Below are positions 1,190 to 63,885 of a DNA stretch of 64,000 nucleotides, piece by piece; positions within the stretch are counted from its first letter, which is position 1, and the number at the start of each line of letters is the position of its first letter. Below the pieces are notes generated by a model. The model had not been told where the DNA came from. It saw nothing but the letters and a program-made list of their open reading frames with translations, and searched no databases. The DNA lies in contig NC_089738.1 of assembly GCF_035083965.1 (NCBI RefSeq), positions 7,981,734 to 8,045,733 on the forward strand, written 5' to 3'. Source of the stretch: Branchiostoma lanceolatum. Its lineage: Eukaryota; Chordata; Leptocardii; Amphioxiformes; Branchiostomatidae. Made by a program: the position numbers and the translations under genes.

Positions 1190-4100
1190 TTACCACTTGA
1201 GGTTGGTATTGCTTGACTCTCCCAAATACATGGTCATGGGCACGGCTGCCGCGATACTAACGATGTACATGACAAGACAAAGCCTGTCCAGCACCTGAGC
1301 CAGCAGGGTGTAGTCGGACACCACCTCCTCGTTCCTAATGGCCTTGGTCAGCTCCTCTGTCTGGTTGTTAACCGCCCTGGTCAACTCCTTCACAATGGAG
1401 GTCAGCTTGCGAAGGCGGGAGGAACCGGTGGTCTCGTCCAGACCTGTTGGAGGCGGTTTGGGCTGCCCGGCCCTCACTTTGTCACCGCCGAAGACCGCCG
1501 CCATGTCATCGCCTTGAAAGGCGTAGTTGGTCATCTCGATGGCACTTGCACCCTTCACCTTCGTCAGGTCTCCCAACAGCATCATCCTGGATAACAAACA
1601 TAAACAAAATGATGTCAAAGCTTCTCACTTATGTCCATATGAATGCATAGTCATTTATTGAGTCTTACGTGGAGAGCTTAATTTTCAGATGATTTTATGT
1701 TGGATAAGATGAACTGAGAGAATGCTGGTGATTTTTTTATTAGAAGAATAAAGCAAAACTAATATGAAACTTTTTAGAAAAATATAATTTCAAAGAATCT
1801 GCAGATGAAGTGACGCATCAGACCATTGTGTGTTATAGTATACACAGATATCATGGAAGCCAAAAATGTCGAAACAAATAGTAGGTACTTTGAAATGTAG
1901 CGGAGGAAAATTATCTGAGCCAACGGGGGCAGGCTTCCCTCCCGGTCGTGAAGAATGATGATGCCCATGGTGAAGAAGAGGAACAACCCCATCAGACCCA
2001 TGCACACGATGATCAGCGAAGCTGTAACATAGTACATGGTAAACAGTTACCAGGATGCTTAAGGATTCATTTGAAAGCAGCCTTTAGTTAAAACTATATT
2101 GAACAAATGGTTTTGAAAACATCACAGTCATATCAGTCATTATTTCGGTGCTCAAAATCCTACAATGCCCTTCCACATCACATCAGATCATTTTCGCCTT
2201 TCTCATTCAAAATACTCATCAAAGACAGACTGAAAACGGACACAAACATATCCTTACAGAACTGGTAGCAAATTGAAATTGATGTTGTAAATATGTATAT
2301 ATTGTGTAATGTTATGTGTATGTTTTCCAATGTAATGTGTATGTTATGAGACACCAGGAAGAATAGTACACAAGTGTACTTCACTAATGGAGGTCTTTTT
2401 ACCAAGAAACCAAGAAACCAAATCTAATTTCACTCACCGAAAAAAGGTAAAAACCCCTTGACAGGAAGTACTTCTGTCACAAATACAAGAGACACGACCA
2501 TGGAGAGTAGAATGGTCACTCCAAACGAGATCCGGTCTCCCCTGTCTAATGGCATGAAGAAGGTGATGGTCATCAACACAACGAGGATGACGCAGGGCCC
2601 AACTGTAGTGGCAATGTGGAACAGGGGGATCCTCTCCAGACGAACAGCAAAGCACGCTTCCCTGTTGTCTTTCGCGAAGGTCTTGTCTTTACGGTACCAC
2701 TCACCCTCCGTTGTTGCGTTAGAAGAGGAGTTGCACGGATTGTATCCTATGCCTGATGCACGCCTCCCCCCTTGGCATTCTATGTTCAACACATCATTAT
2801 AGAAATCGTCAATTATATCTATTGCAATCAATTAGCAAGACAATATGTACCATGTATTGAAAACATGTTATTGGATCAAAGGTTTAAAATAGCGCAGTTT
2901 GATCTACTATTCAAGCAAAATACTATAGTTACAAAATCTCGTCTCCTGCTATCTAACTACGTTTCAACTATACTACAGTTAGTTGAAATATATTTTTTCC
3001 CTGATGTTTCTACTCTTTGTCCTGTCAAATCTTCAAATCGATTCATCTCTGTCAACCAAATGACCTGAAATTTAGCACAAGGGCAGATTGGGCAAATAGC
3101 TAATTTCTTATTCTTTATTTATGGCTTTAGAATGTTTTTTTTTAAATTGTCAGACCAAAAATGTATGTTTTGGCCCTCTGTGCCCTGATATTATATCCAA
3201 ATGACCTGAAATTTGGTGTAAAGATGCCTTGGACATATATTCCCATATGCATTTATTAACACTTTTGTGATGGATTATTTCAAAAATGATCAATTTGGCG
3301 AATTTTGACCAAAAATATGAATTTTTGGCCCCAGTGCTTTTTTTAAAGCAATTTTCAGACCACTTTGAAATGTAATTTTTTCGTTCCTACGTCCTGGTAT
3401 TATCAGAACTTGTAATCATTGCCACACATTATACCATGTTTGCACAACATTTTAAAGAACGACAGAAATTGTCATAGACAGCAGTTAAGAAGGCTTACTA
3501 ATTGTGTGATTGGTCGCTGTTGTTAAAAAGAAACAAACGTGACATTCCATGATGTCAGCCGGAAAGAGGAAGGGGTGTGCATCACACACGGTGGTGGTCA
3601 GGGTTTCCACGCCCCATTCTACCACGCCATCGTTGCTCAATCCTACCGGTACATCCCTCTGTAGTTCTTTGTAGATCGGATCAGCACTGCGAAGTAGCCA
3701 ACAAGTTTTGGTTATTATCTCCATGAAAAATGGAGATATATTTTTGGGTGTGTCTTTCTGTGTGTTTGTATTTCCGGATTGTTGTCATCAGCATAACTCA
3801 AGAGCCGCAGGATGGATTACAATGATACATGTATTTGGTATGTGGGTAATTGTTGGTAAGACAAATGTCAATGTGAATTTTGGGCCATCTGGTATGTGAC
3901 CTTGGTACTGCAGCAAAACTTCAATTTTTTATCTTTTGACCTGGACGTGCTATGGTCTTGATTTTTTTGTGGCATAGCTTGCGATACGTGGAAGTGTATG
4001 TGGTTAATATATGTTTGAGCACCCTAGCAGCTTGCTCTGGAACTGCAGGGGCGTTTTTGTCAAAATCTTCTAAGGAGATTAACTGAACAAAGGAACGACA

Positions 4101-7100
4101 GTTTGTATTTGGTATGCAGGTAGCTTAGACAGAGATGTACATAATGAAGTTCAAATTATGCAAATTGAGATTACATTTGCAGAATTAATGAGGGAAATGT
4201 CTATTTGCAGTGTTTTCATTATAGGACTCAAATATATGTGACATATGTAGTTTATGGCAGGTGGAACATTAACAGATACCAGTTATGCAAATACATTTCT
4301 AATTTTCATAATTGATGCAGAAGTGAATTTTCATAATTCATCTAAGTGATAAATGGTTCGACTGTCAATATTGTGACATGTGTAAGTTAGTTAAAGGTCT
4401 ACATGACCAGGCGTATATATATATTTTGTGTTGAAATGGTGGCTTCTTGTGTTAGTACATAACATTATAGTGTACAAGACTGGAATAACGTAGAACCACG
4501 CTATGTTTGACCATTGGTTTGGTTAGTAAAAAAAATCTTTATCCATTTTTTTTCATGAGCGACATTTTAATCATGAATTTACTACTTAAAAGTGGGTTAA
4601 TTAAAGAAGAGACAACATAATTTTTCTTAAGAGTCAATGTTGGAGTCCAAATTTCGTTGTCCCGAACGCTGAGTGTATCGATGTCATCGTAGTATTCCGG
4701 ATCCCAACTCAGTCGGCTGTCTTGCCATGTCTACAAAAAGAACACTTAATTGTGAAGAAAATGTGGATGAAATTAGCGTCCATGGGCCAAAATGACGTCA
4801 CAATAACATTCTCTTATAACTATGCCAACACGGGGCTTCTTTTATAACTGTGGCAACTTACCATATCGATGACGACAGAAGCAACAAGCTGTTCCTTCTT
4901 TTCATCCTGAAATAAAAGACACAGCATGAATCAAGATGTATTTTTGCTCCCATAATTAATGTCATAATGGAAACCAAACTTTGAAAGAGATAAAAATACT
5001 TACCAATTCTACTATTAGGTCCACAGCGCCTTTGAAGTTGATGGTGACATTCACGGGTGGCAGAGTCTCAGTGTACGTCTCCAGTAGCTCCTCTCGCAGC
5101 CTTTGCCAATGGTTTACTACAGGAGGATGTGTGTGTAAAATTCATACTGATGAAGATAATCAATGGGAGGAAACTTGTAAATTTCAGATTGATCATGACA
5201 TTGTTTTGTGCCCATATGTTGTCTAAAAGAATGGATTTTTAAGATGGTGTAATAGTTCTCATTCCAGCATGGTAGATCTTGCAGAATTTACCAAACTTAT
5301 TCAAAACAGCATTGCCTTTGGACGAAATAGTTTGTAGTCTTGCGGCAAGTGAAGTTGATATTTCGGCTCTGCATATTTCTTTACCATTCAAACGTTAACC
5401 TACCAATATTATTCTGCAGACGTGCAGTACTCTCCAAGCAGAGGAGTGGTTCTGGCTGGTTTTTGATGTGACTTTAGGCGTTTTTGTCGGGCTGTCTACT
5501 TTGTCCTTTTTTAAATCTGTAAACCACACAGGTTTATTAGGCATTGATCGTTCCATCTGCCGGCAGAGGTGTGGTTTAGAGAAAAAAAAACCATGACAAA
5601 GTAGACAGCCCGACAAAAACGCCTAAAAACATGTCAGAAACCAGCCGGAACCACTCCTCTGCTTAGAGAGTAGCGTGCAGCAAATACAGTTTTAGGCTTT
5701 ACTAAAATTGTGTGCAATTCACCTGTTGCAAAAAGATGACGCTCTTAACAATTACCTGAGCAACTGGGCTTATCAAATTCCCATCTGCCTCCTTCGATGC
5801 ACCTCACTTCCCCGTTGTACCCGGACTTAAGTGTGTACCCTTCGTTGCACGTGTAAGTCACCCTTTCTCCTACGTAGAAGACCCTCTTGTTTGGACTTCT
5901 AAGGCCATAGTTTGGAGGACCCCTGTCCCAGCAGATTTCGGCATCTGGTGCAGTAAGATGTAACAGTTAGTGGTAAGATCATCATCCAACTAGCACACTT
6001 AAAATGTATATGGTCAAAAAAGAAAATGATGAACGGTTCGGGTAAGCAAAGCATATTAATAAGTATAATTCGCAATGTTTGTCTTTAAATGTAATCAGCT
6101 GTGCATTGCATAATCAACAAAATCAACAAGAAATAAAATCATATACCTTTAAATAAGTGTTATGAAACATTTTAAGTTATGATGCGTATTTCAATCAGTA
6201 TCTCCTTGCACAACTTACCACACGGAACGACGTCACAATCCTGCTGCCTATCGTCTTGGTCCAAACAAAATGGCCGGTTGAGACCGGTAGGGTTGCGACA
6301 GTAGTTGTTATCCAGGTTAGCCCAGGGGTACTTTTTCAGGTAGTAACCATCTTCCGCAGTTGTCCACTCAACACAAACTGCCCCAGTTGCAGTTTTACTC
6401 CATGTACCACGGTAGTTCATGCCATTGCCATGGTAGCAAACTGAGGAAGATAAAAGAACAAATAAGGTGATGGTATACACGTACAAAATTATGGTAAATA
6501 AATAAATAACTATATAAAAATAACGCTTCTCTGATAAGTGTCATGAATTCCGTTGGCGTGTCGAAATTAAACTAACGTTATGGTTATGACAGTTGTTAAT
6601 ATAAAGTGAAATGGACCGAGAATCTTAGATACTATTTCCAGTGGAAAAAAACAAACAAATGAAGTCTTTCGTTTCACCTTCTTTTCCCTTAATGGATGAA
6701 TACTGATTCCAGCAACCATCTTTGGATGATGGAAACAGGTTACATGGAGGCAGCAGTTCTTTTATCCAGTCATCAGCCTCGTTGAGCACTTCCTCACACC
6801 ACGAGCGGCATGGTGCCAGTTGTGTGCCACTAAGAAACATACAAGCAGATTTAGTACCGATAGGTTAAAGTTCAGCAGTTACCTTCGCCAAGAAGTTTAT
6901 GTTTTACAGAGCGTGGTTCTGTGTGTGTTTGTTAGTAGACACGATGTATCTGACAAATAGAGGGGCATTGATAGATGAAGGTTATACAAATGACGACCTA
7001 ATTTGCAAAATCAATAAGACTATACAGTAATTCCACATTGGTAAAGAATTGGAATTTTATACATTTGAAAGTTATGTGAAGGTGAACATGGTTGAGTATA

Positions 7101-10100
7101 TATCACGCAAACTATAAAAACAAAACATTGCCGTAACGTTTTTTTCCAACTCACTTGCATGAGTCTGCGCTAGTTGCAGTTGGAGACGACAGGCAGGCAG
7201 TCTCGTTTCCTTCCGAGACGTTGCATCGCGGAAAAATGACCGCCGAGGCAAATTTCCTTAACTCTAGGTGGTGCTCCCCAGGGATGCTGTACGAACTGTC
7301 GAGAAGCTCCACGGCAGAGGAATTCTGGATCTCCTCAAACGTCATCTGGTCCAGCTGATTAGGTAGCATTGTCAGTCTACTGTCGAGTTGAAAACCCTCA
7401 GGCATTGGCAGGCACACTGAAAAGTTTTAAAAAGAGTAGTTTATTTCTGTGCTTACGATATTGATTGAGAAGAAGACAAGCGTTTGGAACCGTAGGTAAC
7501 TGCAGCATAGAAAGGAGATAAATTAGACGATATCAGGCGTTTGTTTTGTTTGAGAAGATATATACAAGAGCCATTCAAGAGAAATGAGTATTTTTCTCAG
7601 TCTTTTGCTGATTAGACATAGCAGCAATGTTTAAAAATAAATAGGAAATGTTAAAATAAAAATATATTTGGAGATTCGGACTTAAGTCTGCAGTAGCATG
7701 AAACATCATGTTCGTGACACAACAATGATAAAAATATTACAGAACCTGTATTTCATTCTTGACTTATGTCGAATTCATGAGTTCATGAGTTCATAATGTA
7801 CAGTGTACAGTCAAGCTTATCTATAGGTACCACCTGTATGACAATTTTTCCACTTTCTTCTAGTCGAGTGGTCACTTCAAACAGGCTCGACCGTGCATTT
7901 TATATTATAAAATCATGGATTCAGAAATGCTTCAACATTGTCATAACACGAGTCTTTACAAATAACGCAGGTTTACCAATCTAGTACAATCTTTATTTCT
8001 TTCACGATGATCTAACACTGCCCTCTTTGATAAGAAATACCCGGCTGGTGTTAAGCTATCAGTGCTATTTAAGTTGGAAGGATATGATGTCTACTTGGAC
8101 TACAACTCTACGAGCAACTGCAAAGTGTATGCACAGCAAGACCTCTACCTGGGAGCCCAGACTGGGACAGGGCCGCTAGCGGTTTCTTCGGTGGTCCAAG
8201 ACATTCAGCCCGCCCGATCTTAATCAACGCTCCGGGGAGTTGTAGCCCGGGGGGAGTAGGGCCGGTCATCTCTTGGGCTAGAACTCCACGGTGCGCTAAT
8301 TATGGTTTCGGCGGGCTTGGGGCTCTGGGCCGCCGAAGGAATTGGCTAGAAGGAACCGGCGAAAAGGAACCGGCTAAAAGGCCCGATAAATAGTCTGGAT
8401 CCCAGGGTACATGACCTCATGACAGTGACTCACCACAACCTTCCTCATCACTCCCGTCCGTACAGTTCATGACCCCATCACAACGATTCCACGACAGGAT
8501 ACATGCGCGTCCGTGTCCACAGCGGAAGTATCCTAGAGAGCAGCTGATTCCTATGTAAAAAGTTTACAAATGGAGTTCATTAGAATTTTGAAGTAATCTG
8601 ATATTTGTTCTGAAGAAAACGATCATAGCATACGTACAACAATCACGCAGCGATCCACAGAGAAACACTAACCTATACTAAGTGTTAGCTGCCATATGAA
8701 ATGATGAGTGATACACATAAAGAGTGTGTTTTGATAAAACAGTCTTTAACCGGGTCTAATTCTTCTACCAGGGCAGTGAAGGAACATATTCCTCGATATA
8801 TGCCAAACAATGAAAGTTAGGCAAGGACGTTGACTATCTAAAGATGGGGCAAAGTCAATTTGTTTGATTCATGTCTTAAAGCTTCGAATGGGTTTAGTAA
8901 CTCACTTGTATATACGGACAGTTAAACAGGAAATTTCAACCCTGACCAATGATGTTAATTTTACCTCGATGTTTACAAGTTGGTGTAGCATCACTCCATG
9001 TCCCGTTAGACTGGCAGGTTATATTGGCAGTCCCCAACAGCTGGTACCCATCCACACAGGTGTAGCTGACTGTCTGTCCTGATGCAAAGTTGTCGTTGTT
9101 ATCCCTGGTCCCATTGGAAGGCATACCTGGATCCCAGCACTGGCCTGGGGTACTGCCTGAGAAACAAACGATGCAAAGTTATTAATCTCCTTCCCCACAG
9201 TTACTGTTTCATCATTTCTTCACTTTCCTCAGCAGGCCCGACTAGCTCTGCATGTTACCTGCCGCATCGGCCCTGCCTTGCCTACCAATGGGCGCTCATT
9301 CTGGCTCCTGGCGACGTTACCATCAAAATCTTTCCGCTTTTTGTGTGGCAATCAAAGGATCACTACGTTTATTTTGATTTCACCACATTCGTTTTGTTAA
9401 ATTCTTAGTTAACCAATTGTATAGTTTTTGTTTCATTTTATTTATTTGTATAGGGACTCAAGGAAGAATAGTGCATATTGTATATCACTAATGGAGACCA
9501 AAATAAAACAAACAAACAAACAAACTTTGGGATTAGAACAAAATAACGGCTGTTTGTGCCAAATAAGGCTAAATCGTTAATTATTCATGAGCAACCGCCA
9601 GTTACGTCACCGGGAGCCAGAAAGAGCGCTTAGAATAGCAGGGCCGATGCGGGAGGTAACGCGTAGAGCGAGTCGGGCCTGCTGAGGAGGGTGCATTTCT
9701 TTAAATAGCATACAAATTCAGGAGACAGAGCCCCTTCCCCAAAAAAATTATACTGACAGCATTGACAGCCCACCAAATGATTACATGTATACTGTGAAAA
9801 GTGCAATCTAAGACCTTACTTATGTAGGAGAACTGGAAACCCCGACGCGTTCCATCGCCGCTAGATGTAAACCTCAGGAACATGATGTTAGATGTACTGG
9901 TGACGGGGCTGACTGACGGTTGGCCTGTTAACCTGGAGAGGAAGAAATAAACAAGGTTAGAAACGCAAAATATCATAACATTTCTCGGATTCAGGTCTGT
10001 TATTTTTTTCCATTCCGTCATCCAGAATAAATGGAAGTTTTAAGAAAGGCAGCTTGTATATCCCATAATGATTGGTCATCACAATATCCATAGTTGCACC

Positions 10101-13100
10101 TACCCTGGGAGTCCAGGCACCGTAATCGGAGCGCCACGGAGCACCGCACGCGCGCCCAAGCTTTCACGGCCCACCCTCCCGCTGCCCCCCGAAGACCGAC
10201 CCCGCCCCACTCTCCGCTGCAAACCCAAGCTCCGCTATCCGAATTTGGGTTTGCAGCGGAGAGTGGGGCGGGGTCGGTCTTCGGGGGGGGGGGGTAGCGG
10301 GAGGGTGGGCCGTGAAAGCTTGGGCGCGCGTGCGGTGCTCCGTGGCGCTCCGATTACGGTGCCTGGACTCCCAGGGTAAGTTGCACCATAAAAAGGTGAG
10401 AGCTTTATCAGTATATGTCTTATATGATTACATGTATATGTTTAGAAAATGATACTGGAAACGCATTTACGTTTGCGTGGTTTTAATTTCGCACTAAGGG
10501 GAAAATGGTGTCTTCGCGGTGGTTTTGAGTTCGCGGCAGCGCTACAGTCACATACTGCTACACTATTGAAAAAAAATGTTCGCGGTGAAACGGTCGCCGC
10601 GAAAACCGCAAACATAAAACCACCGCGAACATTTCTGCATTTACAGTACCGTTGTAACTCTGCAGCACTATCACTGGATCCATCGTAGATGGTCAGAACG
10701 TCATGACCGTTCTCAGTGCTGAAACTGTCGAACGTAAGTCGAATGATGCTTCCTTCTGGTACAGTGATCGACCACTCGCAGTTCTCATTGTTGCCATAGT
10801 TACTGGGATAGTTCGGTGACGTCACAGGGCCTCCTGAGGGTGCCGTCAGGTTACCACAACATCCAGTCGCGCTGGTTCCTGAGGAATGAGAAATACCATC
10901 ATCAGGGCAAGTAATGTCACGTCACTTTGTGAAAGGATAGCCTGGAATCCAGACCTATTATAGCTCCCGAGTCTCTCTCCGCAAATCTCCGCGGAGAGAG
11001 ACTCGGGAGCTATAATAGGTCTGGATTCCAGGCTAGTGAAGGGAGGCCATGGGCCACAGACAGGTTATTGACGCAGGCGCAGAATCCCCACTTTTAGCCT
11101 ATGGTTTGGTTTGGTACCCTTGGTAAAATTAGCTATAAAGGGCTTTAATTTGGGATATTTTGGAGCTGGATGTTGCAGGTAAGGGTTTTTACCTTGTGTT
11201 GTGTTGAAAAATTGACTTTCCGCCATGTTTGTGGTGTCCGTAGGTTGTAGAAGTTTGTTACCAAAAGATGTTATGTGGATTTGCTCAGTTGATGTTTATT
11301 GTGGTGCCTCCGTGTGCCCATACATAAGGCTTCCGAGCTGTTGAACTTTTTCATATTCTTGCTGTATCTATTCTCATTGTTATCATTTACCTTTTGTATA
11401 ATTATTAGTGGTAGTAGTTGCATTTTAGGTTTTCCTTATATTTCTTCGTTCATTTCATTCTATGTTTTGTAAGGAGCCGGCCTTGAAGAGAAATTTCAAT
11501 AGGACCGTCTGTGGCTAAAGTTTTGCGACAAACAGAGGAGACAACATAGCATAAGGTCCCTTGCCTTGGCTTCTGCACACACAGAATCAGTTACCTATGT
11601 TCATTTGTGCCCCATGACAACCCAGCGTCATGCATTGACATCATCGCCACTAATATGATCACTTCTTTTGTTCCCTACCTATCGCGGTATCAATTTGAAA
11701 TATGAATAAATAATGTCGTTCTGTACAACACACTGATGGCTGTCATATGACTACTCGTCAGCTTGTATTGAAACCCAACATTGAATTCAGTAAATAAAGA
11801 TGTATTTGTAGTGGTGTTTATTTTCTCATATCACATATCAAAGGATGTAACTGTACGACACTACATGACAAGGCGGATCTATGTTTGTATCTTTACAAAT
11901 CTACAACATTAGATACTACACGAATTTTAAAGCTTATGTAATATCTTAGGATAAATACTGTGTTATCTTGTCAGATGGGCCACAACCCAAAACCTCAAGA
12001 TTGCTATAAATCCGTAGAAAAATTTCCCATTCAGATCTAAACAAATGTCTATATATGTGTGACGAGCAAGGGGGAAAAACGTACATTTCATAAAGTTACT
12101 GGACAAAAAACGTTACTGCAAAATGGAAACGCACTTGCAGCAAATAAAGAGAGGGTGAGTCACGAAGCCCGCTACATCCTCATCACTGAACCAGTGCATT
12201 TTAAGACCTTAATATCAAAGGCAACCAAAGTAATATCAGGGCCCAAAATATGGAAATAAAAAAAATGCTGATATCTTTATGGTAGTGACATTTACTAACA
12301 CTATTTAGCACATTTGTGTAATAACTTTGAGTATTTCAAAACCTCACAAAAGCATGCCGTACGGTAATCACCTTAGTTTCACGAGCCTACAAAAATCCCA
12401 GCGACAATTTTCAGTGAGTTCTTACATCACAACGACGTCGTATTTATGCATGATGGACGTTGCTATACATTGTGTTAGTGTTGTTTGAACTAATCATTGT
12501 ATAGAAATTACTAAATAATTTGACTTTCAAAATCCAATTTTCGGGCCCTAATATTGCTTGGGTTTCCTTTAACCAGGCGAACGAACACTACTTATGGATG
12601 TACCCAGATCGCCAAACAACGTAATGCAAAACTGTTAAGATATGAACGACAAACCGGCTAGCTGATTAAGGGGTTGACCGTTCCCCCAAGACGCACAGTC
12701 TCGACCAGTGCCAGAGATTATGAATCAACAGTACCTTTCTAAAATTTAAAAAAAAAATGCTTTTGGATAGACAAGTTAAGGACGACGTCGCACTGCATTT
12801 ACATTTTTATATCCTATTTTAAACATGCCTCGTACAGAGAAGAATAACCCGTTTTTACACCTTGGTGGAGTGGGGAAAGTGACCCGTGTAAAGTGCATTT
12901 CTCAAGGGCACAACATCGGTGGTGTCAGGGGATTCGACCGAGGAACCACTGGGTTCTGGGCCGAACACCCTGCCGTTACGCCATACGACCCTTGTTACGT
13001 GACCATATCCTGGCTTGTCTACGATAATAAACTGAACACACTAGCTGTATTCCTCAAAAAGTTTCAAACGTTCTAAGAAAGTACCTCGAGCGCCCTAACA

Positions 13101-13288
13101 CAGTGCTAGCAATCGCGACATGTATATAAAATTCCCCATTTCAGCCATAGACTTATTTTCAACTCCAAAGCTTTATATATCTCGAACCGTCTGTCTACAA
13201 ACTTACAAATAGATATAACCCCTAGCGCCCTACCTGTGGCAAACATCAGCGAACAGATGATTGCAGCCGAGAGAAGTTGCCCTCCCAT
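1190..13288 (-). CDS. Chimeric CUB/sushi/LDLa/Frizzled/kringle Cys-loop ligand-gated ion channel
   Basis: Sixteen exons, read high to low: 13288-13234, 10878-10650, 9932-9820, 9156-8965, 8550-8434, 7416-7155, 6829-6678, 6440-6219, 5944-5756, 5116-5004, 4906-4862, 4730-4621, 3686-3499, 2818-2438, 2021-1889, 1586-1190. They total 2898 nt, or 965 residues plus TAA. Every junction keeps phase, and all but one are GT-AG; the donor after 4621 reads TT. The start is the ATG at 13288, opening a signal peptide (MGGQLLSAAIICSLMFATG). About 500 residues of extracellular modules are followed by a full pentameric channel subunit with four membrane segments. Known family: Cys-loop receptors are neurotransmitter-gated plasma membrane channels. 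Inference: this is a channel with a large adhesive or Wnt-binding-like head. I know of no described receptor with this set of modules. Two fused neighbouring genes is the alternative, but phase continuity across 5756-5116 and the lack of any stop or second signal peptide argue against it. Confidence 0.85.
3700..4400. repeat. Dispersed repeat with terminal hairpin (intron of channel gene)
   Basis: The segment begins with a short hairpin (TATCTCCATGAAAAATGGAG with its inverted partner) followed by a thymine-rich body. The same hairpin in reverse orientation is at about 35005-35030. Related bodies, with phrases like 'gcataactcaag' and 'tttggtatgtgg', lie near 6880-7060, 20770-21600, 25470-25900, 29560-30190 and 40650-40860. 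No coding capacity is seen, so it is probably a non-autonomous element family. Confidence 0.5.
4619..4622 (-). other. Non-canonical 5' splice site (TT in place of GT)
   Basis: On the minus strand the exon 4730-4621 ends in AA and the intron begins TTATGT. Phase (two bases of a codon completed by T from 3686), the conserved 110-nt exon length, and gap-free alignment to nicotinic receptors all put the junction exactly here. A single change, G to T at +1, turns the ordinary donor GTATGT into TTATGT. No GT nearby gives the required phase. It could be a sequencing error, a null allele, or true non-canonical splicing. Confidence 0.7.
5428..5672. mobile_element. MITE with about 32-bp inverted ends and 8-bp target duplication
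   Basis: The ends are inverted copies of TACTCTCCAAGCAGAGGAGT and continue with few mismatches for about 32 bp. Inner inverted segments (GACAAAGTAGACAGCCCGAC and partner) make most of the 245 bp foldable. Flanks read ACGTGCAG on the left and GCGTGCAG on the right, an 8-bp duplication with one mismatch, suggesting a hAT-type origin. It lies in the intron between the second sushi exon and the first channel exon. Confidence 0.75.
8146..8409. mobile_element. MITE, TACCCTGGGA family, 9-bp target duplication
   Basis: The left end reads TACCTGGGAGCCCAG and the right end is the inverse of TACCCTGGGATCCAG. Flanks are CAAGACCTC and CATGACCTC, a 9-bp duplication with one mismatch. The interior is GC-rich and has no open reading frame. 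The right end lies about 25 bp from the donor of the LDLa exon. Confidence 0.7.
9227..9687. mobile_element. Palindromic MITE with roughly 90-bp inverted ends
   Basis: The left arm starts CCTCAGCAGGCCCGACT and continues through a CCGCATCGGCCCTGC block; the right arm carries the inverse of both and ends AGTCGGGCCTGCTGAGG. The central part is AT-rich. It lies in the intron between the CUB and sushi 1 exons. Confidence 0.65.
10101..10378. mobile_element. Foldback MITE, near-perfect 278-bp hairpin, 9-bp target duplication
   Basis: Two arms of about 130 bp are near-exact inverted copies starting TACCCTGGGAGTCCAGGC, with a loop of about 17 nt near 10229-10246. They differ mainly in the length of a G/C run. 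The flanking 9-mer AGTTGCACC is identical on both sides (10092-10100 and 10379-10387). It lies inside the intron that splits the CUB domain. Arm identity suggests recent insertion or conversion. Confidence 0.85.
10453..10648. mobile_element. MITE of the TACTGTAAATGC family abutting a CUB exon
   Basis: The minus strand begins TACTGTAAATGCAGAAATG and is rich in TTCGCGG-type repeats; the other end reads TACTGGAAACGCATTTACG. Sister copies lie at 44460-44653, 53026-53250 and 54773-54981, with a partial one near 23700-23860. Its terminal T is the T of the GT donor of the CUB exon ending at 10650. Confidence 0.7.
10938..11035. mobile_element. Short hairpin MITE, TACCCTGGGA family
   Basis: Perfect inverted arms of about 45 bp start TAGCCTGGAATCCAGACC and surround a loop of about 8 nt. 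Flanks GTGAAAGGA and GTGAAGGGA form a 9-bp duplication with one mismatch, matching the two larger elements of this family in the same gene. Confidence 0.75.
11040..12824. other. Intron 1 of channel gene, no gene seen
   Basis: AT-rich intron between the signal peptide exon and the first CUB exon. One partial copy of the tandem repeat found at 13425-15000 is present at about 11600-11830 (shared phrases CTTCTTTTGTTCCCTACC and GAATAAATAATGTCG). No exon-like conserved segment was recognised in the rest. Confidence 0.4.
12825..13015 (-). mobile_element. tRNA-derived SINE fragment
   Basis: Read on the minus strand, the segment at about 12930-13000 has a tRNA-like head (ATGGCGTAACGGCAGGG, A box-like) and GGTCGAATCCCC (B box-like). 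It is followed by a conserved body (a TTTTTACACCTTGGTGGAG block on the plus strand) that recurs near 41690-41820. It lies in intron 1 of the channel gene. Confidence 0.55.
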
Positions 13289-26764: not shown

Positions 26765-26984
26765 TAAAGTATTCCTCACTATGAAAACAGCAACTTGAGA
26801 AGGGATTATTATGATGAATTTGATTATTACAATGTAAAATGATTATCATACGTATCATGATTGATACTCCTACATTTAGAAGAAGCTCCAAAACCTGACT
26901 TTCAAACAGCAAAGATATTCGCCAAATAGCAGCAACTGGATTATTTTGAAAACGGTCAGACATTTCAATGAGAAGAGTTCAACA
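26765..26984. repeat. Dispersed repeat shared with 31550-31800
   Basis: Phrases such as TATTCCTCACTATGA and GATATTCGCCAAATAGCAG match sequence near 31545-31760. This marks the end of the duplicated C1q segment plus an older repeat related to 262-500. Confidence 0.45.
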
Positions 26985-27725
26985 CCAAGGACAGTGTTGT
27001 TAGTGTGGGACGTGTTCAGCCCCTAGGACAGTGTTGTAATTGTGGAAAGCGTTTAGCACCAGGGACAGTGCTGTTTGTGTGGAAAGTGTCCAGCCCCAAG
27101 GACAGTGTTGTAATTGTGGAAAGCGTTTAGCACCAGGGACAGTGCTGTTAGTGTGGAAAGTGTTCAGCACCAGGGACAGTGTTGTTAGTGTGGGACGTGT
27201 TCAGTGCCAAGGACAGTGTTGTCATTGTGGAAAGTGTCCAACACCAGGGACAGCATTGTTATTGTGGAAAGTGTTCAGAACCAGGGACAGTGTTGTTATT
27301 GTGGAAAGTATTCAGCACCAGGGACAGTGTTGTAAGTGTGGAAAGTATTCAGCACCAGGGACAGTGCTGTTAGTGTGTTAAGGGTTCAGCACCAGGGACA
27401 GTGTTGTTGGTGTGGGACGTGTTCAGCACCAGGGACAGTGCTGTTAGTGTGGGACGTGTTCAGCACCAAGGAAGTGTTGTTAGTGTGGAAAGTGTTCAGC
27501 ACCAGGGACAGTGTTGTTACATATACTGTGAAAAGTGTTCAGCACCAGGGACAGTGTTGTTAGTGTGGAAAGTGTTAAGCACCAGGGACAGTGTTGTTAG
27601 TGTGGAAAGTGTTCAGCACTAGGGACAGTGTTGTTACTGTGAAAAGTGTCTAGCACCAGGGACAGTGTTGTTAGTGTGGGGCGTGTTCAGCACCAGGGAC
27701 AGTGTTGTTGGTGTGGGACGTGTCT
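26985..27725 (+). repeat. Minisatellite, about 19 units of roughly 37 bp
   Basis: The unit approximates GTGTTGTTAGTGTGGAAAGT followed by GTTCAGCACCAGGGACA. Variation is mostly GGACGTG for GAAAGTG and point changes. Long reading frames are by-products of the repeat. It lies between the C1q pseudogene and the intact C1q gene. Confidence 0.95.
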
Positions 27726-47485: not shown

Positions 47486-53824
<6,339 letters not shown>

Positions 53825-58917: not shown

Positions 58918-61900
58918 ATGCCCTGGCACATGCTCAGTGAACAGCTTGCCAGTGTGCTTCAGTATCTGCCTGCCTCCCCACTCCTCCTCTTAGCTGTCCT
59001 CTCTCTCACCTCGCTTCTGCTCATATCCGTCGTACTAGCCGCCCTCAAGCTCAAGATGTCGCGGAGAATCCGCGCCCGCCCCCAGGACGGGAACCTGGCG
59101 GCGCCGTACCGCAGCGTGGACTCCCCCGAGCTGAAGACGATGATGTTTGAAGAGTGTGACACGATTGATAAGCTGTGGTCGCGTGCCGTGGGTCTGTACG
59201 CTACCAAGAAATGCCTGGGAACCCGGGAACTACTAAATGAAGAGGACGAGGTCCAACCCAACGGGAAGGTTTTCAAAAAGGTGAGAAATCGACTCTCCAA
59301 TTACCCCATTTACAGCCTTTTATGATATTTAAAAGTATTGATTTGAAACCGACCCCTGGTAAATTGATCTTAAATTTCCAGTCAATTGATTGGCATTTAA
59401 GGATTGCTTCGTAACATTGCAAGATAGTTCAATGGAATAGCACTGTCACTACAAATGGTCAAATTCAAGATTTCAGCCTAATCAATACATGTAGATGTAG
59501 TGTCTTTATATATATATCTTAGCTTAAACTGAATATATTTTTTACAAAAAGCCCCCAAAACATTATCTTATCCACTGATTATTTTTTATTTTATGTGAAA
59601 CTTTTGGTGCTTAGTGTTTTACTAAAAAAGAAGCCTTTTTGTAGTCCTATCTTCTACATCTTGCGTGTTCCCATAATTTTTGTGTGCTCAGTTACTGTAA
59701 ACATTGACGAATTACGTTGTGTACACATTATTAGATACCATTTCAACTCCGCTAACTGTATTACAATGGCTTATCCCACCCTTACTATGTCCTGGACCAA
59801 TAATTATGAATATACGAAGCATAATTCTATTCGGACCAGTAACTGAGACTCAAGCTATATTATATGATTGAAATTGGTTTAATTTATCATCTAAAACAAT
59901 ATTGTAGTTTATAGAAATCTCATGGTTTATGTTTGTGAAAGATGAAAATGTTGGGAAATGGTTTAAAAATTCCTTGATGGAATCACGATATGGAATCTGG
60001 AAGGATGGAATCAATGCGAGATTCCATGTGTACGTGTCCCGGTCACGCCCCGCTTCCCCATGAAATTTTCATGGAATGCAATTCCCAATAAAGCCGGGCG
60101 CGGGAAGGAATTATACCGGTTAGGGTAGGGGTTTAGTTCATGTCCTTACAATGTGTTGGAAAAAAGGAAACAATCTATTGGGAATTCTCAATGAATGGGA
60201 GAATTCATAATTTTGGAAATGTCAGGTCAATGTCTTTTACTATGATGAGAGTTCTAGCAGATGGCTTTCATAGGATTCTTATCTTACATGTTAATATGTT
60301 TATCCAAAGTAAGCAACAATTATATCAGATGCAATTATTATGATTGCTTCCGAAAAGTACCTTTTTCAAACTTGATTCTTTGTAATTTTTTTTCTTATAT
60401 TCCAAACAAATATTGCTATAAAGATGAAAGAAACATCCTATACATGTAGATGCACCCTTCCATAAATGCAAATGTATGAATCGAAAAGCTTGTACGTCTG
60501 TTAAAATTTGGCATTGAAATCAGCTTGGTATTTGCTTTGATCATGACGTCAATACTAGGGTAAGTAGAATATAAACGAAGTCATTAACGTAGTGCTTTGT
60601 CCACGATAAAGGTTTTCTCAGCTGTCGCTATTTGCATACTGTTTGCAGTGACCGTAGGAAGGAATACTCACCACAAAAGAATGCCGCTGCCTTAGATATA
60701 CCACAGGGTTCACTAAGAATGTCCCCCTATTAACACTCGAGGCTTGGGCATAACATATGGAGAACCCCGGGGAAATAGCTTGTTCACTAAATGGACATGT
60801 CAGATTGTCAGCCATCCCTTTGTGTGCGCAAAAAGCATGTGTTTGAATCGTGTTCGGTTCTCGCAGGGTCGTGATGGTATAGGAACACCCACGCACTTTG
60901 GAGGAATACGTTTCAAAATATCTCAATGCTTCAACCCTTAGTGTGTAAGATTTATATCTTACTTATACAAGAGCCAAATTTAAAGAAAACAGTCTCTTTA
61001 TAATATTTCCCTCCTTGTACCCTGTTCAAGAATTAGAGAAAAACGATCATGGCTTTTTCCAAATCTTACATCTCACCAACACAGGGTCATTAACCACCAT
61101 GGTAAATTTAAAAAAAAGGGGGTTGTGAGATCTTTTATTAAAAAGTAGGCTCTGCCTCTATTATATTATAAGCACACAGGCTCCTGGAAATAAAGAAAGG
61201 CTTTTTTTCCAAATCTTACATCTTAAATCTTACAGTCACAGGTCATTAACCACCATGGTAAATTGACAAAAGGTTGTGACAATATTTTATTAATCACTAG
61301 GCTCTGCCTCTATATTATAAGCACACATGCAGGCTCCTGGAAAAAAAGAAAGGCTTTTTTTCCAAATCTTACATCTTAAATCTTACAGTCACAGGTCATT
61401 AACCACCATGGTAAATTGAAAATAAGGTTAAACGTTGTGACAATCTTTGATAAAGCACTAGGCTCTGCCTCTATTATATTATAAGCACACAGGCTCCTGG
61501 AAATAAAGAAAGGCTTTTTTTCCAAATCTTACATCTTAAATCTTACAGTCACAGGTCATTAACCACCATGGTAAATTGACAAAAGGTTGTGACAATATTT
61601 TATTAATCACTAGGCTCTGCCTCTATATTATAAGCACACATGCAGGCTCCTGGAAAAAAAGAAAGGCTTTTTCCAAATCTTACATCTTAAATCTTACAGA
61701 CATGGGTCATTAACCACCATGGTAAATTGAAAATAAGGTTAAACGTTGTGACAATCTTTGATAAAGCACTAGGCTCTGCCTCTATATTATAAGCACAGGC
61801 TCCTGGAAAAGAAAGAAAGGCTTTTTCCAAATCTTACATCTTAAATCTTACATACATGGGTCATTAACCACCATGGTAAATTGACAAAAGGTTGTGACAA

Positions 61901-63885
61901 TATTTTATCAAGCACTAGGGTCTGCCTCTATATTATAAGCACACAGGCTCCTGGAAAAGAAAGAAAGGCTTTTTCCAAATCTTACATCTTACATCTTACA
62001 GACATGGGTCATTAACCACCATGGTAAATTGAAAAAAAGGTTAAACGTTGTGACAATCTTTGATTAAGCACTAGGCTCTGTCTCTATGTTATAATCACAC
62101 AGGCTCCTTGAAAAAAAGAAACAGCTTTTTCCAAATGTCACATCTTAAATCTTACAGACACCGGTCATTAACCACCATGGTAAATTGACAAAAGGTGGTG
62201 ACAATATTTTATTATTAATATTAAGCACTATGCTCTGCCTCTATATTATAAGCACACAGGCTCCTGGAAAAGAAAGAAAGGCTTTTTCCAAATCTTACTT
62301 TCGTGACATACAAATGTAACTCCCATCTTGGCAATGTATTCTAAGGGTGATCTTAGCGATAAGGTACATCCCAAAGCTTTGTTCTTATAAAGTATAATCA
62401 CCATTGTGGTGACATTTTGTATAATTTTGTTGTACGTCCAGAAAATCTTCCAACTTAAAGTATGAATCGGGTCAAAGTCTTCACTTCCCAAAGAAAAGGA
62501 TGGTTGGCTGAAACGATTAGCTATTTTTACCCCACGGCCACCAATTCCTTATTATGCTGTAAATAGTAATCATTTGCACAATGTCTTATGTTCCTTTGTA
62601 ACAATAAGAAGTGAAATGTCAAGGATAGATTTTTTTAGCTATAAAAAGAATGAACCAAGATATTGTTTTGCTTGCAATTTATTTTCAAGAGAAAAATAGC
62701 ATCCAGGCCTTATGTTATACATGTATGCCCAGGTCATAGAGTTGAACAGCTATTTTAGTCCACGGTTGCTATTTTAAACAGGCATTGTGCCAAAAAAAGA
62801 CTTAAGTACTGAAGACTGGCAAGTGCAATGTAATTGTCATCATTACTAGAGATGATGATAGTTCGCACTAACTTAATTATGTTTGGTCCAATGAAAAACA
62901 ATGAAGCAATTATTCAAAGCCGTACACCCGAGCCATTTAGAATTTAACAGTTCTACATGACAGGCAGAATTTTTATTTCTACGATGACTGTATCATTATT
63001 TTTTAGTCATAACTCAAATACTTTGGTGTTGATGGAGTCGTCTGCAGGTGTTTGGGGAGGGTAGGGGGTCTTGTTTTCATTTTATTGATCGAATCAGCAG
63101 CATGACCATATATGGGCAGGGCACAAGGCCGTTGGGAATTTCATTCTAGCTGGGTCCTGAGTTAACTGTAAATCACTGTATAGACCCATAAAATGGAATT
63201 TTGTGGTTTTCTTGCGGAAAAATCATGTTAAAGATGTAGTTAATTCAGGAAATGATGGCATTTCTTCAACCTTTCACTTTGTAAATATAATTTTGCTTGC
63301 AAATAAGTCACTGATATTGACACAAATTTTAAAAAACATGATATGAACGATGTAATAACAATTATCATATCAGAATAGCAAATGTATTAAAAGAAAATTG
63401 TCTAACTATTACAGATGTAGATTAATCAGCACTGTATATTTTGTTTTTAAGATATGTATTTATCAATTCCATACATTAATTTTTTTCTTAAATCTATCAT
63501 TTTTAGGTCAAACAGTCTAAATGCCTGAATAGCTAATTTTTGATATTAAAAATAAAATTAGATAACTAATTAAATGCAATGTCTATTTACTATGTTTAGT
63601 TTCATTTTTGTCACCTATTTTCTTAAGGCAGAAATTATGACAGCATGGCTTAAGATTATCATAACTTAAAGTTAAAAGAATTTCTAAAAATATTTTTTTC
63701 ATCACAGGTGATTCTAGGGGAGTACAAATGGCAGACGTATACAGAGGTGGACCGGCGTATAGTCAGCCTCGGACAGGGCCTCGCCGCCCTCGGACAGAAG
63801 CCGCGCAACAACGTCCTGATGCTGGCGGAGACGCGAGCGGACTGGATGGTCACAGCGCAGGCGTGCTTCAAGTTCAACTACCCCT
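58918..63885 (+). CDS. Long-chain acyl-CoA synthetase, ACSL3/ACSL4 type (5' part, continues past the right edge)
   Basis: Two coding exons are in view: 58903-59280 (ATG at 58918) and 63708-63885; the donor after 63885 leads out of the window. Role from the family: ATP-dependent activation of long-chain fatty acids to acyl-CoA on endoplasmic reticulum and lipid droplet membranes. Seen here: an N-terminal membrane anchor around residues 22-42 (LLLLAVLSLTSLLLISVVLA), then basic MSRRIRARP, APYRSVDSPELK, DTIDKLWSRAVGLY, CLGTRELLNEEDEVQPNGKV and FKK; exon 2 continues VILGEYKWQTYTEVDRR, GLAALGQKPRNNV, and AETRADWMVTAQACFKFNYP. EVQPNGKVFKK and ILGEYKW are typical of the ACSL3/4 branch rather than ACSL1/5/6. 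The ATP-binding and catalytic motifs lie downstream and cannot be checked. A single ACSL3/4 ancestor is expected in invertebrate chordates, so I do not choose between the two symbols. Confidence 0.92.
59281..61019. other. ACSL intron, unique part
   Basis: AT-rich intron. Near 60600-60930 a stretch of average GC content holds a minus-strand reading frame of 102 codons that resembles nothing I know. No exon signal. Confidence 0.35.
61020..62300 (+). repeat. Satellite-like tandem array, eight units of about 150-160 bp in alternating types
   Basis: AACCACCATGGTAAATT recurs at about 61092, 61248, 61401, 61561, 61712, 61866, 62014 and 62170. Each unit holds a GGCTCTGCCTCTATATTATA block, AGGCTCCTGGAAA and a CCAAATCTTACATCTTAA block. 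Two variants alternate: one with GACAAAAGGTTGTGACAATA, one with AAGGTTAAACGTTGTGACAA. It lies in the intron between the two visible ACSL coding exons. Confidence 0.93.
62301..63707. other. ACSL intron, remainder
   Basis: AT-rich sequence after the satellite array. No exon or RNA gene was recognised up to the acceptor ending at 63707 (ATCACAG). Confidence 0.4.

What the first reader, a model, noticed from the sequence alone, without database searches (positions are those of the whole stretch)
1190..13288. A Cys-loop ion channel carrying a CUB-sushi-LDLa-Frizzled-kringle-sushi extracellular head
One continuous, phase-consistent 16-exon model joins a signal peptide and six shuffled extracellular modules to a full nicotinic-receptor-like channel with Cys-loop and four membrane segments. 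Cys-loop receptors normally have nothing but a short leader before the ligand-binding domain. The head is of a kind found in proteases, complement proteins and receptor kinases. This suggests a channel gated or localised by a protein ligand, matrix or pathogen surface rather than only by a small transmitter.
Basis: partly seen in the sequence, partly recalled or inferred. Interest (0 to 1): 0.95.

Follow-up and report, generated by a model that had tools for sequence, protein, structure and literature searches.

The report
Lancelet ion channels with shuffled heads
In lancelets, a large family of nerve-type ion channel genes carries a long, exchangeable head built from modules usually found in adhesion and immune proteins, so these channels probably sense or attach to large molecules or surfaces rather than acetylcholine.

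The parts
13234..13288 (-). exon 1: start codon and signal peptide (MGGQLLSAAIICSLMFAT), ends in phase 1
   Evidence: donor score 8.1, hydrophobic core 2.53; resembles N-terminus of P0015 MAAQLSWAAVICWLVFATV
10650..10878 (-). exon 2: CUB, first part
   Evidence: Pfam CUB E=1.1e-23
9820..9932 (-). exon 3: CUB, second part
   Evidence: Pfam CUB
8965..9156 (-). exon 4: Sushi 1, phase 1-1
   Evidence: Pfam Sushi 3.4e-17
8434..8550 (-). exon 5: LDLa, phase 1-1
   Evidence: Pfam Ldl_recept_a 1.1e-7
7155..7416 (-). exon 6: Frizzled-like domain, first part
   Evidence: no Pfam hit here; FZ by family profile: 43 of 43 PDB hits are Frizzled, sFRP or sizzled
6678..6829 (-). exon 7: Frizzled-like domain, second part
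6219..6440 (-). exon 8: Kringle, phase 1-1
   Evidence: Pfam Kringle 1.2e-13
5756..5944 (-). exon 9: Sushi 2, phase 1-1, last head module
   Evidence: Sushi precedes the LBD in 114 of 118 relatives
5428..5672 (.). fold-back (MITE-like) element inside the intron between head and channel
   Evidence: 85-nt arms, 88% complementary; the label MITE-like is my inference
5004..5116 (-). exon 10: first exon of the ligand-binding domain, enters in phase 1
   Evidence: structural match to nAChR starts at residue 1 of the chain 5kxi_B
4862..4906 (-). exon 11: LBD, 45 nt
4621..4730 (-). exon 12: LBD, 110 nt; donor is TTATGT, not GT
   Evidence: donor score -0.6 against 4.4 to 10.8 for the other 14, which trained the matrix
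4023..4042 (-). 20-nt mini-exon of NCBI model P0001 (adds YFQSKLLG with the changed exon 12 end), doubtful
   Evidence: absent in the 10 other lancelet and 3 outgroup rows of A4; residues 594-607 have pLDDT under 50
3499..3686 (-). exon 13: Cys-loop (C-x13-C) region
2438..2779 (-). exon 14: end of LBD, M1, M2 (GDRISFGVTILLSMVVSLVFVTEVLP), start of M3
   Evidence: acceptor revised from 2818 to 2779
1889..2021 (-). exon 15: M3
1190..1586 (-). exon 16: intracellular loop, M4, stop

Best explanation
A real fused gene from a lancelet multigene family of cation-type Cys-loop channel subunits. SHOWN from sequence and model: a head of about 490 residues (variable tip plus constant LDLa-FZ-Kringle-Sushi stalk) is joined in cis at the point where a mature nicotinic subunit begins; pore and Cys-loop are conserved; the residues that form the nicotinic acetylcholine box are lost. 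INFERRED: in the assembled pentamer up to five heads crown the receptor; the tip binds a macromolecular, matrix-bound, cell-surface or microbial ligand, and the stalk holds or pulls on the channel, so that binding localises the channel and/or opens or tunes it and yields a cation current. NOT KNOWN: ligand, tissue, partners, and whether the head gates or only tethers. The window copy itself may be impaired by a lost splice donor.
Against: No transcript, protein or current seen in any call. All relatives are gene models, mostly NCBI; PMC4967905 (section 12 read) shows that lancelet chimeras can be prediction errors, and some rows here look like that (reverse transcriptase, P450, long LRR arrays). 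35 of 64 lancelet hits have no near-full LBD, many of them membrane part only: partial models, or headless fragments. Five lancelet hits have head modules without channel; two of them (P0187, P0188) end right after the last Sushi, so head-only products may exist. The 5-HT3A-like outgroup P0139 also lacks Y93, W149 and C190, so box loss argues against a nicotinic site, not against every small ligand. 15 of 72 relatives have a Trp three columns before the W149 column, so that loss depends on the alignment. Exon 12 of the window copy lacks a GT donor. CUB and CTLD tips also occur in non-recognition proteins (recalled).
Confidence: 0.6

Rival explanations
1. Tethering only: the head replaces in cis the extracellular clustering scaffold that other animals supply in trans (CUB-LDLa LEV-10 and Sushi LEV-9 cluster nAChRs in C. 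elegans). The channel is opened by a conventional small ligand, perhaps at interfaces with other subunits, and the head only places it.
For: The head modules CUB, LDLa and Sushi are those of LEV-10 and LEV-9 (passages of PMC9083331); the stalk is constant across most of the family; CUB-LDLa-FZ-KR-Sushi rows lie near the base of the channel tree; box loss does not exclude another small ligand, as the 5-HT3A-like outgroup shows.
Against: Nicotinic box residues, including the W55 position, are lost in the 72 rows examined; the repeated exchange of tips fits diverse ligands better than one scaffold.
Confidence: 0.25
2. Acetylcholine-blind chemoreceptor: like octopus chemotactile receptors, the ligand-binding domain itself binds a new small or hydrophobic molecule; the head is a pre-filter or anchor.
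For: Octopus receptors are nAChR-derived, expanded, and do not bind acetylcholine (PMC11526382 passages); here the LBD diverges more than the membrane part in most identity bands and carries four extra cysteines conserved in every row with a residue there.
Against: The exchange of modules is in the tip; nothing shown for an LBD pocket; no site-selection test was possible (no DNA for relatives).
Confidence: 0.15
3. Gene-prediction artefact: a head gene and a channel gene lie side by side and are wrongly joined.
For: Known problem in lancelets (PMC4967905 section 12); an intron of 639 nt with a fold-back element separates the parts; two relatives are modelled as head only, ending after the last Sushi.
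Against: Same order in proteins labelled with three species and two hybrid crosses; no own signal exon found; stalk and channel co-diverge; continuous phase-1 frame.
Confidence: 0.04
4. The window copy is a decaying member (compatible with the main reading): the exon 12 donor is lost and most transcripts read on to a stop at about 4540, giving a secreted head with part of the LBD and no channel.
For: Donor score -0.6; alternatives -5.1 and -2.8; read-through translation stops after 26 further codons; end branch 0.27 against a median of 0.087.
Against: All other exons open; P0001 departs from only 8 of 229 conserved columns, rank 40 of 45; could be a single-haplotype or sequencing error.
Confidence: 0.35

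Closest known systems
Nicotinic acetylcholine / 5-HT3 receptor subunits (Cys-loop, cation clade)
   Different: a head of about 490 residues in front (exons 2-9); nicotinic box residues lost; extra conserved LBD cysteines
DeCLIC, bacterial pentameric channel with N-terminal domain
   Same: extra N-terminal domains on a pentameric channel that can modulate it (PMC9897478 passages)
   Different: DeCLIC has two beta-rich domains and is prokaryotic; here CUB, Sushi, LDLa, FZ and kringle modules in a chordate; relation of the heads not tested
LEV-10 / LEV-9 / NETO auxiliary proteins
   Same: CUB, LDLa or Sushi modules working next to ionotropic receptors (PMC9083331 passages)
   Different: those are separate polypeptides; here the modules are in the channel chain, with FZ and kringle added
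Octopus chemotactile receptors
   Same: expanded nAChR-derived channels that do not use acetylcholine (PMC11526382 passages)
   Different: no head is mentioned in the passages read; independent lineage (inference)
Neur_chan_memb architecture 269420_PRF0 of B. belcheri (PMC4967905)
   Same: named in print as a Branchiostoma-unique architecture containing a channel domain (section 12)
   Different: no head, family or function described in that section; its sequence was not compared and the supplement was not seen

Membership tests
Pentameric Cys-loop receptor superfamily | LBD plus transmembrane domain by Pfam | tested here: met
   PF02931 1.2e-26 and PF02932 1.5e-18
Pentameric Cys-loop receptor superfamily | Cys-loop cysteine pair | tested here: met
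   both cysteines in 72 of 72 lancelet rows of A5
Pentameric Cys-loop receptor superfamily | fold with four membrane helices | tested here: met
Pentameric Cys-loop receptor superfamily | assembles as a pentamer and conducts | not testable with these tools
   needs expression
Cation-selective subgroup | acidic residue at M2 -1', Leu at 9' | tested here: met
   D and L in 72 of 72 lancelet rows with the motif; 3 lancelet rows had none
Acetylcholine-gated nicotinic receptor | aromatic box (W55, Y93, W149) at the aligned columns | tested here: not met
   V, K and T in P0001; lancelet rows 0 of 70, 1 of 72, 0 of 70; 15 rows have a Trp 3 columns from W149; the 5-HT3A-like outgroup also lacks two of the three
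Acetylcholine-gated nicotinic receptor | vicinal cysteines in loop C (alpha subunits) | tested here: not met
   C190 column 0 of 71; one row (P0024) has an adjacent CC elsewhere
Kringle / CUB / Sushi / LDLa modules | Pfam score above curated cut-off | tested here: met
   51.7, 84.1, 63 and 32.4 bits against 34.3, 21.4, 20.7 and 24.1
Frizzled CRD | Pfam Fz hit in the window protein | tested here: not met
   no Fz row at E<=1e-3
Frizzled CRD | homology to FZ by family profile | tested here: met
   43 of 43 PDB hits Frizzled-type, best 5.4e-15, profile of 9 segments including the window's; 41 of 44 proteins in A6 hit Pfam Fz
Lancelet head-channel family | LDLa-FZ-KR-Sushi directly before LBD | tested here: met
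   P0001 map; 79 of 118 near-full relatives have the whole order
LEV-10/LEV-9-type auxiliary protein | separate polypeptide without channel | tested here: not met
   head and channel in one frame
DeCLIC-type N-terminal-domain channel | same NTD fold | not tested
   head was not folded alone; fold list covers 503-948 only

The most novel reading that the evidence does not exclude
Ionotropic recognition receptors: a chordate family in which exchangeable lectin, CUB, discoidin, pentraxin or scavenger-type tips turn binding of proteins, glycans, matrix or microbes straight into a cation current through a pentameric channel; this would be the first N-terminal-domain class among eukaryotic pentameric ligand-gated channels.
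Probability: 0.35. Interest if true: 0.96.

Novelty: new variant of a known kind. Interest (0 to 1): 0.86.

Why it matters
A 2022 structural paper states that extra N-terminal domains are not observed in any eukaryotic pentameric ligand-gated channel (PMC9897478 passages). Here they occur in 130 database clusters from one animal genus, on a pore that is almost invariant. That makes it testable whether a Cys-loop channel can be gated or placed by a large ligand through its apex, and offers natural chimeras whose tip differs on nearly the same channel (for example P0017 with a discoidin tip and P0025 with CUB plus discoidin). It also bears on how chordate synapses or immune surfaces may recruit channel modules by exon shuffling.

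Tried and rejected
Own-genome search: no genome is held, so gene counts per genome and DNA of relatives were not available. A separate signal peptide for the channel in the 5755-5117 intron: none at donor score 4.0 or more and hydrophobic core 1.9 or more. The hydrophobic stretch MINLKFTSFLPLIIFISMNF just before exon 10 is in another frame; its next GT overlaps exon 10's acceptor, so it could not lead to exon 10 (reasoned; that junction lies outside one search's scan). Further family copies in the window outside the gene: 0 of 913 tblastn rows above 13400, queries being the 87 proteins. Decay test on conserved columns: only weak sign. Rejecting the finding as a chimera: considered, see rivals. 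Papers: 10 searches; kringle + Neur_chan 0 papers, Branchiostoma + acetylcholine receptor + kringle 0, amphioxus + Cys-loop receptor + kringle 0, pentameric ligand-gated ion channel + CUB domain + Sushi 0; the library holds only open-licence papers and no supplements could be read. Find-in-text in PMC6071037, PMC4284660, PMC12373286, PMC2575513 and PMC6896357 gave no head-channel passage for the terms asked. The structure list says nothing about the head: its rows span 503-948 only; the head was not folded alone. Selections: searches returned 178 lancelet proteins; 173 were mapped for family counts, and the 5 without a listed channel domain (P0187, P0188, P0189, P0207, P0214) were mapped apart and are not in the counts. 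One search took 52 of the 56 proteins new (P0132, P0133, P0136, P0140 left out). The tree used 80 of 139 proteins (near-full LBD and TM only). A5 is 72 of 173 lancelet proteins picked by me plus 3 outgroups. Searches scored only the 8000 and 7999 candidates sharing most words, and a shrimp nAChR (P0131, 768 aa) in the length range was missed though found, so absence outside lancelets is not proven.
Full report
WHAT IS THERE. On the minus strand between 13288 and 1190 a 16-exon gene can be read from the DNA. I assembled it and revised it: 2859 nt including the stop, 952 residues, no internal stop, 15 of 15 acceptors AG and 14 of 15 donors GT. Pfam places CUB, two Sushi, LDLa, Kringle, Neur_chan_LBD and Neur_chan_memb in it, each above its curated cut-off. 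The order is signal peptide, CUB, Sushi, LDLa, Frizzled-like, Kringle, Sushi, ligand-binding domain, M1-M4. Each head module sits on one or two exons that begin and end in phase 1, and the first channel exon enters in phase 1, the pattern expected of exon shuffling (PMC4284660 passages describe a 1-1 phase bias in lancelets).

THE SPECIES AND THE SAME GENE IN A DATABASE. The protein matches NCBI protein P0001 of Branchiostoma lanceolatum with 0 mismatches over 942 alignment columns, 8 of them gap columns. So the window very probably comes from that species. NCBI's model differs from my first model at three places: a first exon without visible signal peptide (11226), a changed exon 12 end with a 20-nt mini-exon (4042-4023), and exon 14 starting at 2779. 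The last agrees with relatives and I adopted it.

WEAK POINT OF THIS COPY. The site after exon 12 reads TTATGT. It scores -0.6 on a matrix made from the gene's other 14 donors, which themselves score 4.4 to 10.8; NCBI's substitute donor scores -5.1 and an in-phase cryptic one -2.8. The ten other lancelet rows of A4 join the two exons directly, and the model has pLDDT under 50 at 594-607, around NCBI's extra residues. Without splicing, the frame reaches a stop after 26 further codons. This could be a haplotype difference, a sequencing error or real decay. P0001 departs from 8 of 229 conserved columns, rank 40 of 45, and has an end branch of 0.27 against a median of 0.087, so decay is possible but not shown.

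IT IS A FAMILY. Three protein searches gave 173 lancelet proteins with a channel domain (90% clusters), labelled B. lanceolatum 31, B. belcheri 61, B. floridae 39 and two hybrid crosses 22 and 20. 130 of 173 carry a kringle together with LBD or TM. Of 118 with a near-full LBD, 114 have Sushi directly before it, 106 Kringle-Sushi, 79 the full LDLa-FZ-Kringle-Sushi. favour long or headed proteins, so the fair count comes, whose query was the channel alone: 64 lancelet hits, 29 with near-full LBD, 27 of these with Sushi before it and 2 that start at the LBD; 35 have no near-full LBD and were not counted. Pfam on all 87 proteins: LBD 87, memb 79, Kringle 80, Sushi 80, LDLa 60, Lectin_C 33, CUB 11, Fz 8. 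On the 44 proteins of A6 (P0079 and 43 proteins new): Kringle 43, LBD 42, LDLa 42, CUB 41, Fz 41, memb 40, Sushi 14. The low Pfam Sushi count there, against my family profile which finds Sushi in most, means that these Sushi modules are divergent.

HEAD WITHOUT CHANNEL. Five further lancelet hits list no channel domain. P0187 and P0188 run CTLD-LDLa-FZ-KR-Sushi and end right after the last Sushi, P0189 breaks off inside that Sushi, P0207 after FZ, P0214 has kringles only. In the window, reading on past exon 9 also meets a stop within a few codons. These may be cut models, or a secreted head made by intron retention; I cannot tell.

OUTSIDE LANCELETS. All 87 hits are Branchiostoma. One search had 13 other hits, listed with channel domains only. 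One search, with stalk plus LBD as query, had 23 hits from other animals (plasminogen, HGF, corin, Daphnia and others), 0 of 23 with a channel domain listed. The searches were capped and missed known channels (see Tried and rejected), so lancelet restriction is likely, not proven.

FRIZZLED PART. It is FZ by descent: a profile of nine family segments finds 43 PDB sequences at E<=0.01, all Frizzled, sFRP-type or sizzled. In the subfamily with CUB tips the FZ is canonical (P0079 Pfam E 4.9e-15). In the window's subfamily several of those cysteines are replaced.

EVOLUTION. On a channel-only tree (80 rows, 5 outgroups) the lancelet rows stand apart from the outgroups; CUB-LDLa-FZ-KR-Sushi proteins branch near their base (long branches meet there, so the root is unsure). 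The module next to LDLa changed at least 8 times and the whole tip at least 15 times on 42 rows (incomplete models can inflate this, and no shuffled control was run). Some heads are repeated whole: P0165 and P0169 have three CUB-LDLa-FZ-KR sets. Stalk modules and LBD co-diverge (r 0.80 to 0.94, 86 proteins; in the window's subfamily of 49, r 0.39 to 0.48 against TM), as expected if they are inherited as one gene. Several members share contig lengths and neighbouring locus numbers, which suggests local arrays (inference).

HOW IT MOST LIKELY WORKS. A near-invariant cation pore, a lost transmitter site, a constant stalk and exchangeable tips are what one expects of a receptor family that keeps one output and varies its input. 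I therefore favour a recognition or tethering head on an acetylcholine-blind channel (0.6 for this broad reading). Whether binding opens the channel or only places it is open. Auxiliary proteins with CUB, LDLa and Sushi modules do place receptors in trans in C. elegans, and nAChR-derived channels have lost acetylcholine in octopus, so each half has a precedent.

NOVELTY. The parts are known kinds; the combination is, as far as my ten paper searches show, not described, beyond one locus named in PMC4967905 as a Branchiostoma-unique channel architecture that might be an artefact. PMC9897478 states that N-terminal domains are not observed in any eukaryotic homologue. Automatic database entries already exist. 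I rate it a new variant of a known kind.

Noticed in passing
window 33692-32141, minus strand: Serpin exons (Pfam E 4e-25 and 7.8e-82).
   Followed up: partly
window 49387-47489, minus strand: Methylmalonyl-CoA mutase with B12-binding domain (Pfam E 3.8e-128 and 1.1e-20).
   Followed up: partly
window 18965-18660, minus strand: Zinc-binding dehydrogenase exon (ADH_zinc_N 1.6e-11); upstream ORF at 19480-19100 gives no Pfam hit.
   Followed up: partly
window 26973-27723 and 50090-50600: Tandem arrays: 37-nt unit x20 and 67-nt unit x7.6.
   Followed up: no
window 61051-62298: Tandem array of a 313-nt (or 156-nt) unit, about 4 (8) copies.
   Followed up: no
window 5428-5672: Fold-back element with 85-nt arms in the intron between head and channel.
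   Followed up: partly
P0187, P0188 (relatives): Models with the complete CTLD-LDLa-FZ-KR-Sushi head that end just after the last Sushi, without channel: cut models or secreted heads.
   Followed up: partly
P0032, P0052, P0061 (relatives): Reverse-transcriptase domain listed in three B. belcheri models whose LBD is split: transposon insertion or bad model.
   Followed up: no
P0024, P0072, P0084, P0086 (relatives): Unusual tips beside the channel: GON, pentraxin, LRR array, SRCR repeats; some may be wrong fusions.
   Followed up: partly
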